From the NCBI RefSeq assembly GCF_003350475.1, contig NZ_QQAV01000010.1:124001-188000 (forward strand): a stretch of 64,000 nt of DNA. Direction: 5' to 3'. The notes beneath the pieces were generated by a model. The model was not told the origin of the DNA, ran no database searches, and saw only the letters and a list, made by a program, of their open reading frames with translations. A program made the translations under genes and the position numbers. This document shows, piece after piece, positions 21,319-26,325 of the stretch (positions within the stretch are counted from its first letter, which is position 1; each line of letters begins with the position of its first letter). Origin of the DNA: Pseudacidovorax intermedius (lineage in GTDB: Bacteria > Pseudomonadota > Gammaproteobacteria > Burkholderiales > Burkholderiaceae_C).

Positions 21319-23199
21319 ATGCACACACCACAGGGAGAGAGCACCGCGCGTCGCGCGAAGGGCTCCAGCATTGAGAAAGCCGCAGGGGCTGCGGTCGCGG
21401 CCGGGTCGGTGGCCGCCGCGCTGTCCGATCAGATTGCCACGGGCGGCAGCAATCCGCAAGGACGCCGCACGCATGCGCGCTTCCTCTACTTTCAGGGTTG
21501 GCGATGCAAGCAGATCGCGGAGTTTCTGCAGCTGCCGCCATCGACCGTTTATGGGTGGAAGGACGCCGAGCGCTGGGACGAGGCTGCGCCGCTGGAGCGC
21601 GTGAATGGCGCGCTGGAGATGCGGCTGGTGCAGCTGGTGTTGAAGGACCAGAAGACCGGCGGCGACTTCAAGGAGATCGACCTGCTGGGCCGCCAGTTGG
21701 AGCGCACGGCGCGCGTGGAGCGCTATCAGCACACGGGCAAGGAAGGCGACCTGAATCCGGCCATCGCCGAGCGCACCCGCGCGATGAACGCGGCGCCGCG
21801 CAAGCGGGGGCGCAACGAGTTCACGGCCGAGCAGTTGGAGCAGCTGGAGGCGCTGCTGCTGGAGCAGAACTATCCGTTCCATCAGACGTGGTACGAGAAC
21901 CAGCGGCAGCGGCTGCGCATGCTGCTCAAGTCGCGGCAGATTGGGGCGACCTTCTACTTTGCGCACGAGGCGCTGCTGAGTGCGGCGAAGGAGGGGCGCA
22001 ACAAGCTTTTCTTGAGCGCCTCGAAGGCGCAGGCGCATCAGTTCCGCAGCTACATCGTGGACTTCGCGAAGCAGGTGGGCGTGGAGCTGCGGGGGGAGAA
22101 CATCAAGCTTTGGAACGGCGCGGAGTTGATCTTCCTGGGCACCAACGCGATGACCGCGCAAAGCTACCACGGGGACTTTTACTTCGATGAGTTCTTCTGG
22201 GTGCCGCGCTTCAAGGTCATCAACAAGCTGGCCAGCGCGATGGCGGCGCACAAGCATTGGCGGAAGACCTACTTCTCCACGCCGTCGGCGATGTCGCACG
22301 AGGCCTACCCGTTCTGGACGGGCGAGGACCGCAACAAGGGCAAGGCGAAGAAGGACCACGTGCGCATCGACACCAGCCACAAGGCCCTGAGCGGTGGCGT
22401 GCTGTGCGCGGATCGGAAGTGGCGGCACATCGTGACGGTGGCCGATGCGGCGGCGGCAGGCTTCGACCTGTTCGACATCGAAGAGCTGCGGCAGGAGTAC
22501 ACGGCCGAGGAGTTCGCCAATCTGTTCATGTGCGAGTTCATCGACGACAGCGCATCGCTGTTCAGCCTGGCGGAGATGCAGGCGTGCATGGTGGATTCGT
22601 GGGAGGAGTGGGCGGCGGACTTCAAGCCGCTGGCCCTGCGGCCCTTCGGGCACGAGCCCGTGGTGGTGGGCTATGACCCATCGGACACCGGCGACGCCGC
22701 GGCGCTGGTGGTGCTTGCGTTGCCCCGCGCTCCGGGCGATCCCTTCCGCGTGCTGCATCGCGAGCAGTTCAAAGGCGCCGACTTCGAGGCCCAGGCCGAG
22801 GCCATCCGGCGCGTGACCCAGCAATACAACGTGGTGCACATCGGCATCGATGCCACGGGCATGGGGGAGGGCGTCCACCAGATCGTGGCGAAGTTCTTCC
22901 CCAACGCGCGGGCCTACAAGTACAGCCCCGAGGTCAAGGCGCGCCTGGTGCTCAAGGCCAAGCAGGTCATCAGCAAGGGGCGCCTGCAGTTCGACGTGGG
23001 CATGACGGACCTGGCGGCGGCCTTCATGGCCATCCGCAAGACGTTGACGGCCAGCGGTCGCAGCGTGACCTACGACGCCGGCCGCTCGCAGGAGGCCGGC
23101 CACGCCGACCTGGCCTGGGCAACGATGCACGCGCTGGACTACGAAACCTTGGCCGGCGATGTCGTCGGCGGCCGTTCCTTCATGGAGATCTTCGAATGA
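21319..23199 (+). CDS. P: Phage terminase large subunit gpP
   Basis: This 626-residue packaging motor has a helix-turn-helix region at residues 52-85 ('QIAEFLQLPPSTVYGWKDAE'). The ATPase domain has the P2-type Walker A variant 'KSRQIGAT' (residues 204-211) and Walker B 'FYFDEFF' (Asp290-Glu291). The C-terminal RNase H-like nuclease begins at 'VVGYDPSDTGDAAALV' (about residue 450). It is transcribed with Q, away from O. Confidence 0.96.
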   Translation: MHTPQGESTARRAKGSSIEKAAGAAVAAGSVAAALSDQIATGGSNPQGRRTHARFLYFQGWRCKQIAEFLQLPPSTVYGWKDAERWDEAAPLERVNGALEMRLVQLVLKDQKTGGDFKEIDLLGRQLERTARVERYQHTGKEGDLNPAIAERTRAMNAAPRKRGRNEFTAEQLEQLEALLLEQNYPFHQTWYENQRQRLRMLLKSRQIGATFYFAHEALLSAAKEGRNKLFLSASKAQAHQFRSYIVDFAKQVGVELRGENIKLWNGAELIFLGTNAMTAQSYHGDFYFDEFFWVPRFKVINKLASAMAAHKHWRKTYFSTPSAMSHEAYPFWTGEDRNKGKAKKDHVRIDTSHKALSGGVLCADRKWRHIVTVADAAAAGFDLFDIEELRQEYTAEEFANLFMCEFIDDSASLFSLAEMQACMVDSWEEWAADFKPLALRPFGHEPVVVGYDPSDTGDAAALVVLALPRAPGDPFRVLHREQFKGADFEAQAEAIRRVTQQYNVVHIGIDATGMGEGVHQIVAKFFPNARAYKYSPEVKARLVLKAKQVISKGRLQFDVGMTDLAAAFMAIRKTLTASGRSVTYDAGRSQEAGHADLAWATMHALDYETLAGDVVGGRSFMEIFE

Positions 23200-24275
23200 G
23201 CAAACGACGTGCACGCCATGGCAGTGCCAGCATCACCAGCAGCAGCGCCGCGCGCGTCCTCTCGGCAGCCGCTGAGAGCGGGGCGCCGGCCGAGCCCGCT
23301 TCGCCAGCCGCGCCGGTGGCGTTCACCTTCGGCGACCCTGAACCTGTCTCGCGGCTGCGGCTCATGGACTACGTGGAGGCCATGTTCAATGGCCGGTGGT
23401 ACGAGCCCCCGCTGCCGCTCGACGGCATGGCCCGGGCGTTTCGCGCGGCGCCGCATCACAGCAGCTCGATCTACCTCAAGCGCAACCTGCTGGTGTCGCT
23501 GTTCCAGCCGCATCCGCTGCTGTCGCGCAGCACCTTCGCGGCGTGGGTTCTGGATTTCCTGATCTTCGGCAACGCCTACCTCGAAGCGCCCCGCTCGATG
23601 ATGGGCAGCGTGCTGGAGCTGCGCCGCAGCCTGGCGCTGTACACGCGGCGCGGGAAGGAAGAAGGGCAGTTCTTCTTCGTGCCCAGCTATCAGCAGGAGC
23701 ACGAGTTTGCGCGCGGCTCGGTGTTCCAGCTGCAGGAGGATGACTTGGCCCAGGAGGTGTACGGTCTGCCCGAGTACCTGAGCGCGCTGCACGCCACTTG
23801 GCTAAACGAGGCGGCCACCGTCTTCCGCCGCCGCTACTACGAGAACGGCAGCCATGCGGGCTTCATCCTTTACCTCACGGACACCCAGCTGAGCAGCACC
23901 GACGCCGACGCCCTCAAGGAGGCATTGAAGAAGTCCAAGGGCCCAGGCAACTTTCGGAACCTCTGCCTGTATGCCCCAGGCGGCAAGCCCGAGGGCCTGA
24001 AGCTCATCCCGGTCAGCGAGGTTGCCGCCAAGGACGACTTCCTGTCCATCAAGAACGCCAGCCGAGACGACGTGCTGGCCGCCCACCGCGTGCCGCCTGG
24101 CCTGCTCGGCATCATCCCCAACAACACCGGCGGCTTCGGCAACGCCGGCGAGGCCGCGCAGATCTTCTTCCAGAACGAGATCGCCCCCCTCCAGCAGCGT
24201 CTCATGGCCGTCAACGACTGGCTCGGCCAGGAGGTGGTGCGCTTCGCGCCCTACGAGCTGCCCGCTGCCGCGTAG
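23196..24275 (+). CDS. Q: Phage portal protein gpQ
   Basis: This 359-residue portal/connector forms the vertex for DNA packaging. The ATG overlaps the P stop as ATGA. 'TFGDPEPVSRLRLMDYVEAM' and 'ILDFLIFGNAYLE'-like 'VLDFLIFGNAYLEAPRS' are the family signature. The C-terminal 'VPPGLLGIIPNNTGGFGNAG' is also conserved. A factor-independent terminator lies 36 bp after the stop. Confidence 0.96.
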   Translation: MSKRRARHGSASITSSSAARVLSAAAESGAPAEPASPAAPVAFTFGDPEPVSRLRLMDYVEAMFNGRWYEPPLPLDGMARAFRAAPHHSSSIYLKRNLLVSLFQPHPLLSRSTFAAWVLDFLIFGNAYLEAPRSMMGSVLELRRSLALYTRRGKEEGQFFFVPSYQQEHEFARGSVFQLQEDDLAQEVYGLPEYLSALHATWLNEAATVFRRRYYENGSHAGFILYLTDTQLSSTDADALKEALKKSKGPGNFRNLCLYAPGGKPEGLKLIPVSEVAAKDDFLSIKNASRDDVLAAHRVPPGLLGIIPNNTGGFGNAGEAAQIFFQNEIAPLQQRLMAVNDWLGQEVVRFAPYELPAAA

Positions 24276-24717
24276 CCCCGCACCGACCGCGCCACGGCCA
24301 GAGCACCACGCGCCCCCAGGGCGCTTTTTTTCGTCCCTACCTCGCTGCCCCCTGCCGTGATGCGGCGCACCCGCCCTGCAGGCCATACGCACGCCGCAGC
24401 GCCCTCCGGACGCCACCCCGCCGCCCGCCAATCCCCCGAAGCAGTCGCCCCTGCCCCTCGGCGCGCAGACGAGCCCCCACCGCGCCTGCGCTCTTGTCCT
24501 GTGAATTTTTACGACTGTGTGGTGGCACCTCCTGCCGAGCCACACGGCAGCGAACTCAGCGTTTCATACGGTTATGGGAAATCACGAAATCGCAAGGCGC
24601 AGCGACTCTGGTCTGGTTCAAGGTGGTCCGAGTTGCCCCTGCGTCGTCGGTAGGTTTGGCCGAGAGCCCCCGGGCTCAATCTAGTTAACATTGATTAACA
24701 CTCTTGAGGAGACGACT
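24276..24717. other. Non-coding interval after Q, with a terminator and possibly cos
   Basis: No credible gene is seen in 442 bp. The first part holds the terminator at 24311. From about 24340 to 24490 it is Pro-codon-like, C-rich DNA. On the minus strand around 24415-24440 it reads GGCGGGCGGCGGGG, which loosely resembles the start of P2 cos (GGCGAGGCGGGG). In P2 cos lies just beyond Q, so a cos site is plausible but unproven. GC falls after about 24,490, toward the cargo gene. A TTAACATTGATTAA element lies at 24685-24698. Confidence 0.4.
24311..24332 (+). terminator. Rho-independent terminator after portal gene Q
   Basis: A GCGCCC-CCA-GGGCGC stem-loop (24311-24325) is followed by seven T. 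It closes the P-Q transcript and separates it from the cargo gene at 24718. Confidence 0.85.
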
Positions 24718-26052
24718 TTGCAAGCGTTGGCGGCTTACTCGTTCGAGGCGAACGGCATTGATTCCAGCAGAAGAGTGGATCAGGTAGCGCTGTTGGTAGA
24801 CGATTGGTTGGCAGGAAAGGGCGCTGTCAACCCCCAGTTGGCAGAGGGCGAATTCGTATCAAAAACTGGAGATAAAACTGGGCAGTTCGCCAGAGCCGTG
24901 ATCAGAAGTGGATCGGACGTCCTCCACGAGGTGGAGTTGATCGAGACCGCTCACACCGGCGATATGTTCACGACGAGTCTTCAGTTTGCATCCTCGGGCG
25001 ATGCTGTATCGGTCTACGCTTCTTTGGGCGCTGCACCAGGCCAATCGCGGGTCGCGCCGATTGCCGTGTATCCGCGCTGTCCACTGATCATTCGGACCCT
25101 GATTGCCAACTTTTCCGATTGGAGATTTGCCGGTCAAGAGGTGCCGCTCTCAACAGTATTCGATGCCACGACTGACGATGCGGCGCGACAGCTCTGCGAC
25201 GCCCTGCGGTCTAAGACCCGCCGACTCCCCATCATCGTTGTCTCGAATGATGAGGATGAGCTAGTGTGGCGAGGGCTTCAGAACAAGCTGGCGGACGAAC
25301 TGATTGGCCTCGCTGACGTCGCAGTGGTGAGCGCTGAGTCATCTTGGGTACTCACAGATGAGCTAGGTCCTCGCGACTCGTGCTACCTGGGAGCAGTGAG
25401 GCTGTACTGGCCTGGAGGACGAGCCGATGGCTCCCTCCTGGGCATCAACTGGCGGGCCGGACGTTTGGGGGCATTTGGTAAGGATGGCAAAGGCCGACAT
25501 CGCTTCCTAGCGCTGATGCGACGCGAGGTGATGTCAGTAGCTGCGCTGACAATGCCCAGTCCGACAGTCTTTCGACGAATCCGAAGCGAGGCGGAGAAAG
25601 AGCGTCTGAGGTCGCTTACGGATGGTGCGCGTGACCGAGAGCTTGACTCGATTGTTGAGGAAAACTCACGGTTGACTGCCCGGCTTGAGGCCGCGGAAGG
25701 CACGATTCAAACGCTGCGCTGGAAGATGGCCGCAGGCGCCATGTACGCGGAGCGCAAGGGCGACGCGGCCGACGATGGTGCAGATGTCGAGCAAGCCGAA
25801 GACGGGCCGGAGGCTCGGCCGGCGCCAGCGGCCGGAGAGACGCGTTACTACAAAAAAATCGGAAGCGGCGGTGGCGTAGATGCATTGGTGATAACAAAGG
25901 CCTGCTCGCACAGAGAAGCTAATTGGCGTCCTGCCTTCAAGGGTGATCAAGCAGAGAAGGGCTTGCTGAAGCTGGAAGGGCGAAATGACTGGAAGAGCAT
26001 TGCACACTGCAGCTCTTGCACAGGCGGGGGGCGCTGGCGGGTTCATTGGTGA
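24718..26052 (+). CDS. Unknown cargo protein in the Q-att interval, candidate phage defence
   Basis: This 444-residue protein starts at TTG 24718, with GAGGAG six bases upstream; an earlier in-frame TTG at 24691 lacks such a site. Residues about 1-270 are alpha/beta, with 'LPIIVVSNDEDELVWRGLQ' and 'SSWVLTDELG' followed by 'GAVRLYWPGG'. Residues about 285-335 form a charged coiled coil. The C-terminal about 65 residues hold Cys396, His398, His430, Cys431 and Cys434 ('ACSH' and 'HCSSCTGGGRW'), a likely zinc site. I do not recognise the family. Lower GC and different codon use, its own promoter region, and location in the accessory slot between Q and the attachment site point to horizontally acquired cargo. 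In P2 the region beyond Q holds the defence genes old and tin, so a defence role is inferred from context only. Confidence 0.75.
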   Translation: MQALAAYSFEANGIDSSRRVDQVALLVDDWLAGKGAVNPQLAEGEFVSKTGDKTGQFARAVIRSGSDVLHEVELIETAHTGDMFTTSLQFASSGDAVSVYASLGAAPGQSRVAPIAVYPRCPLIIRTLIANFSDWRFAGQEVPLSTVFDATTDDAARQLCDALRSKTRRLPIIVVSNDEDELVWRGLQNKLADELIGLADVAVVSAESSWVLTDELGPRDSCYLGAVRLYWPGGRADGSLLGINWRAGRLGAFGKDGKGRHRFLALMRREVMSVAALTMPSPTVFRRIRSEAEKERLRSLTDGARDRELDSIVEENSRLTARLEAAEGTIQTLRWKMAAGAMYAERKGDAADDGADVEQAEDGPEARPAPAAGETRYYKKIGSGGGVDALVITKACSHREANWRPAFKGDQAEKGLLKLEGRNDWKSIAHCSSCTGGGRWRVHW

Positions 26053-26293: not shown

Positions 26294-26325
26294 TCGAAGG
26301 GGTTCGAATCCCTCCGTTTCCGCCA
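26294..26325 (+). other. Prophage attachment site (att) in the 3' end of a tRNA, probably tRNA-Ser
   Basis: The sequence gives a T-arm with GGTTCGAATCC and an acceptor half CGTTTCC-G-CCA ending at 26325, but no matching 5' half (expected to begin GGAAACG about 85 bp upstream). It is therefore a tRNA fragment, as left at one end of an element that integrates into a tRNA gene. The acceptor sequence fits tRNA-Ser. The intact tRNA should lie at the other prophage end, left of the window. Everything to the right is ordinary host DNA. Confidence 0.72.

What the first reader, a model, noticed from the sequence alone, without database searches (positions are those of the whole stretch)
24718..26052. 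Unrecognised 444-residue cargo protein between portal Q and the attachment site
Seen: low-GC gene with its own spacer and TTG start, an alpha/beta N-terminal region, a coiled coil and a C-terminal Cys396/His398/His430/Cys431/Cys434 cluster. Known: the accessory slot beyond Q in P2 carries anti-phage genes (old, tin). Inferred: this is a horizontally acquired defence or exclusion gene, possibly nucleic-acid binding through a zinc site. It is the strongest candidate for something undescribed in the window.
Basis: partly seen in the sequence, partly recalled or inferred. Interest (0 to 1): 0.75.

Follow-up and report, generated by a model that had tools for sequence, protein, structure and literature searches.

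The report
Prophage-borne HEC-07-like defence gene variant
A dormant virus in this bacterium carries, in a slot where such viruses pick up extra genes, a protein whose core matches a candidate anti-virus defence family (HEC-07) but whose back end is a well conserved cysteine/histidine domain that my searches found in only two other proteins, so it probably protects the host against rival viruses with an undescribed working end.

Summary
The gene is real: 24718-26052 (+), TTG start behind GAGGAG, 444 aa, GC3 0.62 against 0.89-0.95 in four phage genes. It lies between portal Q and attR of a ~42.1-kb P2-like prophage in tRNA-Ser(GCT). It is not wholly unrecognised: residues 118-346 match PADLOC HEC-07, a candidate defence family (E 2.2e-22); no Pfam model reaches its cut-off and no PHROG or NCBIfam model matches. 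Profile comparison shows a core shared by four groups, while the window group's last 73 residues resemble no other group's C-terminus. That Cys/His end is the best conserved part (81-82% against 60-69% overall) and was found in only three proteins. Among 8 related portal loci, one has DzbA and one a weak PD-T7-4-like gene beyond Q; this prophage also carries PDC-M01 and a XamI-like restriction-modification pair. Best reading: a prophage defence gene with HEC-07 core, coiled coil and an exchanged Cys/His module, probably the effector. Zinc binding, activity and mechanism are untested. New variant of a known, candidate kind.

The parts
24718..26052 (+). HEC-07-like cargo gene, 444 aa, TTG start
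24706..24711 (+). GAGGAG ribosome-binding site, 6 nt before the start
   Evidence: read from the sequence
24718..25062 (+). residues 1-115: beta-rich N-terminal subdomain with one long helix
   Evidence: AlphaFold model; only weak Foldseek resemblances, such as PsbP and DcrB
25063..25557 (+). residues 116-280: most of the HEC-07 core, thioredoxin-like in the model
   Evidence: PADLOC PDLC04161 at 118-346; Foldseek thioredoxin matches mostly prob 0.96-1.00 but E 4e-3 to 5e-2; that they fall on this subdomain is inferred from length and order of elements, the listing gave no ranges
25564..25752 (+). residues 283-345: coiled coil
25753..25830 (+). residues 346-371: variable linker (5/24 and 10/26 identical)
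25831..26049 (+). residues 372-444: Cys/His C-terminal domain (C396, H398, H430, C431, C434)
   Evidence: 59/73 and 60/73 identical in two distant relatives; no other credible relative found
24310..24324 (+). terminator-like hairpin after Q
   Evidence: not above chance by count
23196..24275 (+). portal gene Q of the P2-like prophage
   Evidence: PF04860; up to 59.7% identity to portals of P2-like phages in the 25 of 333 records listed
26300..26325 (+). attR: copy of the tRNA-Ser 3' end (other copy G000:C10:108175-108200)

Best explanation
The gene is a single-gene defence (superinfection-exclusion) cargo of a P2-like prophage. Shown: its core (about residues 118-346) is homologous to the HEC-07 candidate defence family, it sits between Q and attR, and it ends in a 73-residue Cys/His domain unrelated by sequence to the ends of the other HEC-07-core groups compared. 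Inferred: the HEC-07 part, whose best conserved residues look structural rather than catalytic, recognises a sign of infection or a partner; the coiled coil pairs two or more chains; the variable linker tethers the C-terminal module; and that module, held by a metal site of C396/H398 and H430/C431/C434, is the effector that acts on nucleic acid or another essential target and stops the invading phage or its host cell.
For: HEC-07 match E 2.2e-22, three further HEC-07 models at 3e-6 to 3e-4. Full-profile comparison of the window's group with the three other groups: 97.8, 98.5 and 97.4% probability; C-termini alone: 0.1-0.2%. Columns kept in at least 17 of 19 sequences are W30, T86, P122, P171, S176, A192, G197, A199, V201, G225, Y230 and P232 besides M1: no catalytic-looking set. 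C-terminal domain 81-82% identical where the whole protein is 60-69%. Slot: the passages read of PMC5694545 call the region between cosL and Q of P2-like phages a hotspot for foreign genes and place phiCTX ctx between cos and the Q equivalent; of 8 related portal loci, beyond Q one has DzbA (E 2.9e-49), one a DUF4145 gene weakly matching PD-T7-4 (E 3.5e-7), one a PIN_8 protein without PADLOC match. Same prophage: PDC-M01A/B, MTase_II, RE_XamI. HEC-07 relatives lie inside type I restriction-modification loci in L047 (HsdM, HsdS, HsdR) and L048 (MTase_I, REase_I), beside gpD of a P2-like contig (L034) and on plasmids.
Against: No activity data. HEC-07 is itself a candidate; I could not read the preprint that names it, so I do not know whether it was tested. 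The PADLOC match covers 233 of 553 profile positions. 7 of 12 genome-derived relatives with flanks show no defence or mobile neighbour, including Stagnimonas L024; seven neighbours of L041, L044 and L049 had no PADLOC match. 5 of 8 related portal loci gave no defence-type match beyond Q. Less conserved polar columns exist in the core (R in 14 of 19 at column 71, where the window has E; E215 in 11 of 19). The C-terminal fold is uncertain: five models ranged from 39 to 84 in pLDDT and none of the matches to the PDB is significant. Effector and sensor ends could be reversed.
Confidence: 0.45

Rival explanations
1. The protein is a defence gene, but the roles are reversed: the variable C-terminal module is the sensor or target-binding end and the shared HEC-07 core is the effector or signalling platform.
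For: A constant core with exchanged C-termini would also arise if sensors are swapped; the C-termini of L044, L045 and L049 weakly match another defence protein, NsnC (E 1e-5 to 3e-4), so such ends may move between systems.
Against: The window's C-terminus is the most conserved part of the protein (81-82%), unlike a fast-evolving phage sensor; the best conserved core residues do not look catalytic.
Confidence: 0.25
2. It is a lysogenic-conversion gene with a role other than phage defence, such as host fitness or stress, in the manner that ctx occupies the same region in phiCTX.
For: The cos-Q region also takes non-defence genes (PMC5694545 passages); some related portal loci hold genes without a defence match beyond Q (L069, L074).
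Against: HEC-07 core match and type I restriction-modification neighbours of relatives.
Confidence: 0.15
3. It serves the prophage's own cycle (packaging next to cos, late regulation, or counter-defence).
For: It lies beside Q, in the region where cos is expected in P2-like phages (inference).
Against: GC3 far below the phage genes; no significant homologue in 50,697 phage records (best E 2), no PHROG family; relatives occur on plasmids and chromosomes.
Confidence: 0.08

Closest known systems
HEC-07 (PADLOC PDLC04158-PDLC04161; HEC expanded as 'Hma-embedded candidates' in a passage of PMC12988326)
   Same: Core residues 118-346 align to profile positions 140-372 of PDLC04161, E 2.2e-22.
   Different: Shorter (444 aa against 526-557 profile positions); profile positions 373-553 are not matched, and the end is an unrelated 73-aa Cys/His domain; not in an Hma cluster.
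HEC-07-core proteins of group C (in one search: L004, L005, L009, L031-L035; L036 by eye), among them L034 next to gpD of a P2-like contig
   Same: Same core (97.4% HHalign probability) and, for L034, the same kind of element.
   Different: C-terminus with a recurring 'GKHxK...RY...SDxRxGxN', unlike the window's (0.1%).
Cargo between cos and Q: ctx of phiCTX, ORF1-ORF4 of phiRSY1
   Same: Position next to the portal gene on the cos/att side; phiRSY1 also uses a serine tRNA (passages of PMC5694545).
   Different: Different genes; phiRSY1 uses tRNA-Ser(GGA), here tRNA-Ser(GCT); no cos site was identified here.
Dazbog DzbA beyond Q at a related portal locus (L075)
   Same: Low-GC gene (GC3 0.41) within about 2.6 kb beyond Q.
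   Different: Second gene beyond Q and on the opposite strand; no family in common with the window's protein; weak GmrSD_N match (E 3e-4, below cut-off).

Membership tests
HEC-07 | Significant match to a HEC-07 profile | tested here: met
   PDLC04161 E 2.2e-22; three others 3e-6 to 3e-4
HEC-07 | Match along the full profile, including the C-terminal third | tested here: not met
   Match ends at profile position 372 of 553; C-termini of the groups unrelated to the window's, 0.1-0.2% probability. L044 and L047 match almost the full length.
HEC-07 | Location inside an Hma gene cluster (origin of the name) | tested here: not met
   Neighbours are terminase P and portal Q by Pfam and, beyond attR, chromosomal ORFs read by eye. 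No Hma genes were noticed next to other copies either, but most flanks were only read by eye.
HEC-07 | Antiviral activity | not testable with these tools
   -
P2-like prophage cargo (region beyond Q) | Between Q and att, composition unlike the phage | tested here: met
Zinc-binding nucleic-acid-binding protein | Conserved Cys/His set | tested here: met
   C396, H398, H430, C431, C434 invariant in 3 of 3 sequences
Zinc-binding nucleic-acid-binding protein | Known zinc or nucleic-acid-binding fold | tested here: inconclusive
   No Pfam family at cut-off, no PDB sequence match, best Foldseek E 1.8
Phage structural or housekeeping protein | Match to PHROGs, phage records or viral structures | tested here: not met
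   0 families; best E 2; no match at E of 0.001 or less
Thioredoxin fold (about residues 116-280) | Fold similarity | tested here: inconclusive
   many thioredoxins in the 50 of 1123 matches listed, prob mostly 0.96-1.00, target TM about 0.46-0.67, but E 4e-3 to 5e-2, none at 0.001 or less

The most novel reading that the evidence does not exclude
HEC-07 is not one protein but a modular platform: one conserved recognition core plus coiled coil onto which unrelated C-terminal modules have been exchanged, and the window's group carries a new Cys/His effector domain, matched by no library searched here, which mobile elements use to exclude rival phages.
Probability: 0.4. Interest if true: 0.68.

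Novelty: new variant of a known kind. Interest (0 to 1): 0.5.

Why it matters
If right, it splits a candidate single-gene defence family into a shared core and exchanged ends, which tells where to look for sensing and for killing, and it adds a small, strongly conserved Cys/His domain that could be a new effector. It also gives a concrete case, in the Burkholderiaceae line, of the region beyond Q of P2-like prophages taking up defence-type genes.

Tried and rejected
Close relatives in viral contigs with the window's group and with groups A and B: none; group C gave 6 loci. Of 12 plasmid records with a match I fetched 4. Two hits (L006, L007, query residues 361-421, E 0.007) were rejected because they lie in an ORF that overlaps another long ORF on the same strand (the latter looks like proC, recalled). 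The weak C-terminal hits L026-L029 (E 0.002 to 0.007, partial, L028 with two stops) and a Streptomyces plasmid hit (E 0.8; on the strand opposite to the annotated gene) were taken as chance; only L026 and part of L029 were viewed residue by residue. L014 (profile positions 365-553 only) was not counted as a core homologue. A cos site was not found: the one P2-type pattern tried gave 3 hits in the window with 2 mismatches each (shuffles mean 0.79, largest 4), of which one lies inside the gene and none elsewhere between Q and attR; DNA similarity to phages around the end of Q did not go beyond Q in the 15 of 32 records listed, and beyond the gene only the tRNA end matched in the 15 records listed. 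Foldseek against viral structures gave nothing significant. The C-termini of groups A/B and C looked RelE-like and HicA-like to me by eye; no search supports that, so it is not used. Slot survey: of 11 non-own portal places I took 8; the three dropped were partial matches, two of them with a stop (G022, G121:C79, G121:C32). Att sites of those loci were not sought, so that they are intact prophages is assumed. L070 and L071 are near-identical. PADLOC and Pfam were run on chosen genes of five of the eight (L069, L072, L074, L075, L076). L063-L068 were not examined for context. Neighbours of relatives were scanned for L034, L040, L042, L047 and L050 and L041, L044, L047, L048 and L049, a few genes each; the rest was read by eye.

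Full report
Observation. The ORF at 24718-26052 is as described: TTG start, GAGGAG 6 nt upstream, 444 residues, the five named Cys/His residues at 396, 398, 430, 431 and 434. It is foreign in composition: GC3 0.62 against 0.89-0.95 in Q, P, O and the gene read by eye as gpD. Comparison with two distant full-length relatives, L023 (Burkholderiaceae MAG, 69%) and L024 (Stagnimonas aquatica, 60%), shows third-position excess and the same start. L023 and L002 appear to be the same contig (32,751 bases, same match).

Setting. An exact 26-mer, the 3' end of tRNA-Ser(GCT), occurs twice in the genome: at G000:C10:108175-108200 with the intact tRNA, followed by a tyrosine integrase (PF00589, PF12167), and at window 26300-26325. 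The interval is a P2-like prophage of about 42.1 kb. The gene lies between the portal gene Q (PF04860) and attR. Beside the gpD-like gene and outside the window (C10:118272-123375), the same prophage carries PDC-M01A and PDC-M01B (E 2e-127 and 9e-65), a type II methyltransferase (E 2e-265) and a XamI-type endonuclease (PADLOC E 2e-145, Pfam 6.5e-36).

Family. No Pfam model reaches its cut-off (best E 0.079), no PHROG and no NCBIfam model matches. PADLOC HEC-07 matches residues 118-346 at E 2.2e-22. HEC stands for Hma-embedded candidate; a passage of PMC12988326 says several HECs, HEC-06 among them, have shown antiviral activity, citing a preprint that I could not read. A passage of PMC11411939 calls HEC-05 and HEC-06 GmrSD-like. 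A whole-library search for HEC-07 found one paper, an unrelated COVID-19 study; none of the 20 of 223 papers listed held the term; searches did not turn up the preprint itself.

Distribution. HEC-07-like matches: 7 of 399 genomes of the order with PDLC04161 (one of them matching only the C-terminal part), 7 of 299 of the family with the window protein, 7 of 398 of the phylum with the three-sequence profile; each count includes the window's own genome. In one search, 7 of 149 relatives matched, own genome included, two of which I take as chance. Of the 14 named control genomes, none rang. The window's C-terminal domain was found only in the three full-length proteins: in 369 genomes of the class only the own genome gave a credible match, 4 others being weak and partial, and plasmids, phages and PDB gave none that is significant. 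The genome-contig scan used N-terminal peptide patterns, so copies of the C-terminal domain on other proteins could have been missed there.

Architecture. The 19 proteins that I compared fall into four groups: D (window, L023, L024), A (5), B (3), C (8). I set the groups by eye from the C-termini. Profile comparison of whole groups gives D-A 97.8, D-B 98.5, D-C 97.4, A-B 99.7, A-C 97.7, B-C 98.9% probability, the matches involving D or C ending near the coiled coil. C-termini alone: A-B 94.0%, B-C 22.3%, A-C 0.6%, and D with any other 0.1-0.2%. So the D end is unrelated to the others by sequence; whether C differs from A/B is less sure. Within D the end is the best conserved part (59/73 and 60/73), the linker before it the worst (5/24 and 10/26). 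The C-termini of L044, L045 and L049 weakly match NsnC of PADLOC (E 1e-5 to 3e-4).

Structure. AlphaFold with 9 sequences gave mean pLDDT 70.7, block means of 74-93 for residues 1-300 except one block of 54, and under 50 for most of 342-444. Foldseek against PDB gave nothing at E 0.001 or less; thioredoxins recur among the 50 of 1123 matches listed (E 4e-3 to 5e-2), and PsbP, DcrB and similar small beta-rich folds appear more weakly. The C-terminal 73 residues alone gave a best model of 83.6, but the five models ranged from 39.4 to 83.6, and the best fold match had E 1.8. Core columns kept in at least 17 of 19 sequences are aromatic, proline, glycine, alanine, valine, serine or threonine, which suggests recognition or scaffolding rather than catalysis; that is an inference.

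Context of relatives. Of 12 genome-derived loci with flanks (L024, L040-L050), 5 have defence or mobile neighbours: L047 between HsdM/HsdS and HsdR, L048 between MTase_I and REase_I, L042 by an M78 peptidase, DUF2924 and a serine recombinase, L050 (a partial HEC-07 match) by a C5 methyltransferase, L040 by a resolvase. Seven show none: L024, L043, L045 and L046 by eye, and L041, L044 and L049 by eye with seven chosen neighbours also negative in PADLOC. L008-L011 are on plasmids and L031-L036 on viral contigs, but these come from collections of mobile DNA and cannot be counted as a test. L034 sits right after gpD (PF05954) of a P2-like contig.

Slot survey. A Q-like portal occurs in 10 of 80 relatives, own genome included. 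In 8 of the 11 non-own places the region beyond Q holds: DzbA with a second low-GC gene (L075), a DUF4145 gene with a weak PD-T7-4 match (L076), a PIN_8 protein (L072), three low-GC3 genes without family match (L069), an AntA antirepressor and a serine recombinase (L074), and small ORFs only or unclear content, not scanned (L070, L071, L073). PADLOC thus supports defence in 2 of 8, plus the window.

Mechanism. Shown: HEC-07 core, unrelated end, prophage setting. Inferred: recognition by the core, pairing by the coiled coil, and an effector role for the C-terminal domain with a metal site. The reverse assignment (variable end as sensor) is the main rival. Confidence that it is a defence gene in some form is about 0.7 (the first two explanations together); in the specific mechanism 0.45.

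Verdict. A real, foreign, prophage-borne gene, a new variant of a candidate defence family with an apparently new C-terminal domain. The finding deserves an experiment; it is not a categorically new system on this evidence.

Noticed in passing
G000:C10:118272-123375 (L039:10272-15375), outside the window: The same prophage carries a PDC-M01A/B pair (PtuA-like ATPase plus HNH-like protein) and a XamI-like type II restriction-modification pair near the gpD-like gene.
   Followed up: yes
L039:15398-16159: A 253-aa protein on the minus strand between the restriction gene and the gpD-like gene matches no Pfam or PADLOC family.
   Followed up: partly
L075:3364-5476: DzbA (Dazbog) and a 297-aa low-GC companion lie shortly beyond the portal gene of another P2-like element.
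   Followed up: partly
L072:1221-2864: A 547-aa PIN_8 protein with GC3 0.39 sits beyond the portal gene; no PADLOC match.
   Followed up: partly
L047:4102-12551 and L048:2886-12342: A HEC-07 gene (full-length by profile in L047) lies inside a type I restriction-modification locus, before hsdR, next to a DUF3800 gene (Pfam in L047, by eye in L048).
   Followed up: partly
L011:4656-5504: On a Citrobacter plasmid with KPC-3 the HEC-07-type gene is short (282 aa against 473 in L009), with an ISKpn6 transposase gene just downstream.
   Followed up: no
L044, L045, L049 (C-termini): The C-terminal ends of these HEC-07-core proteins weakly match NsnC, a component of another defence system in PADLOC.
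   Followed up: no
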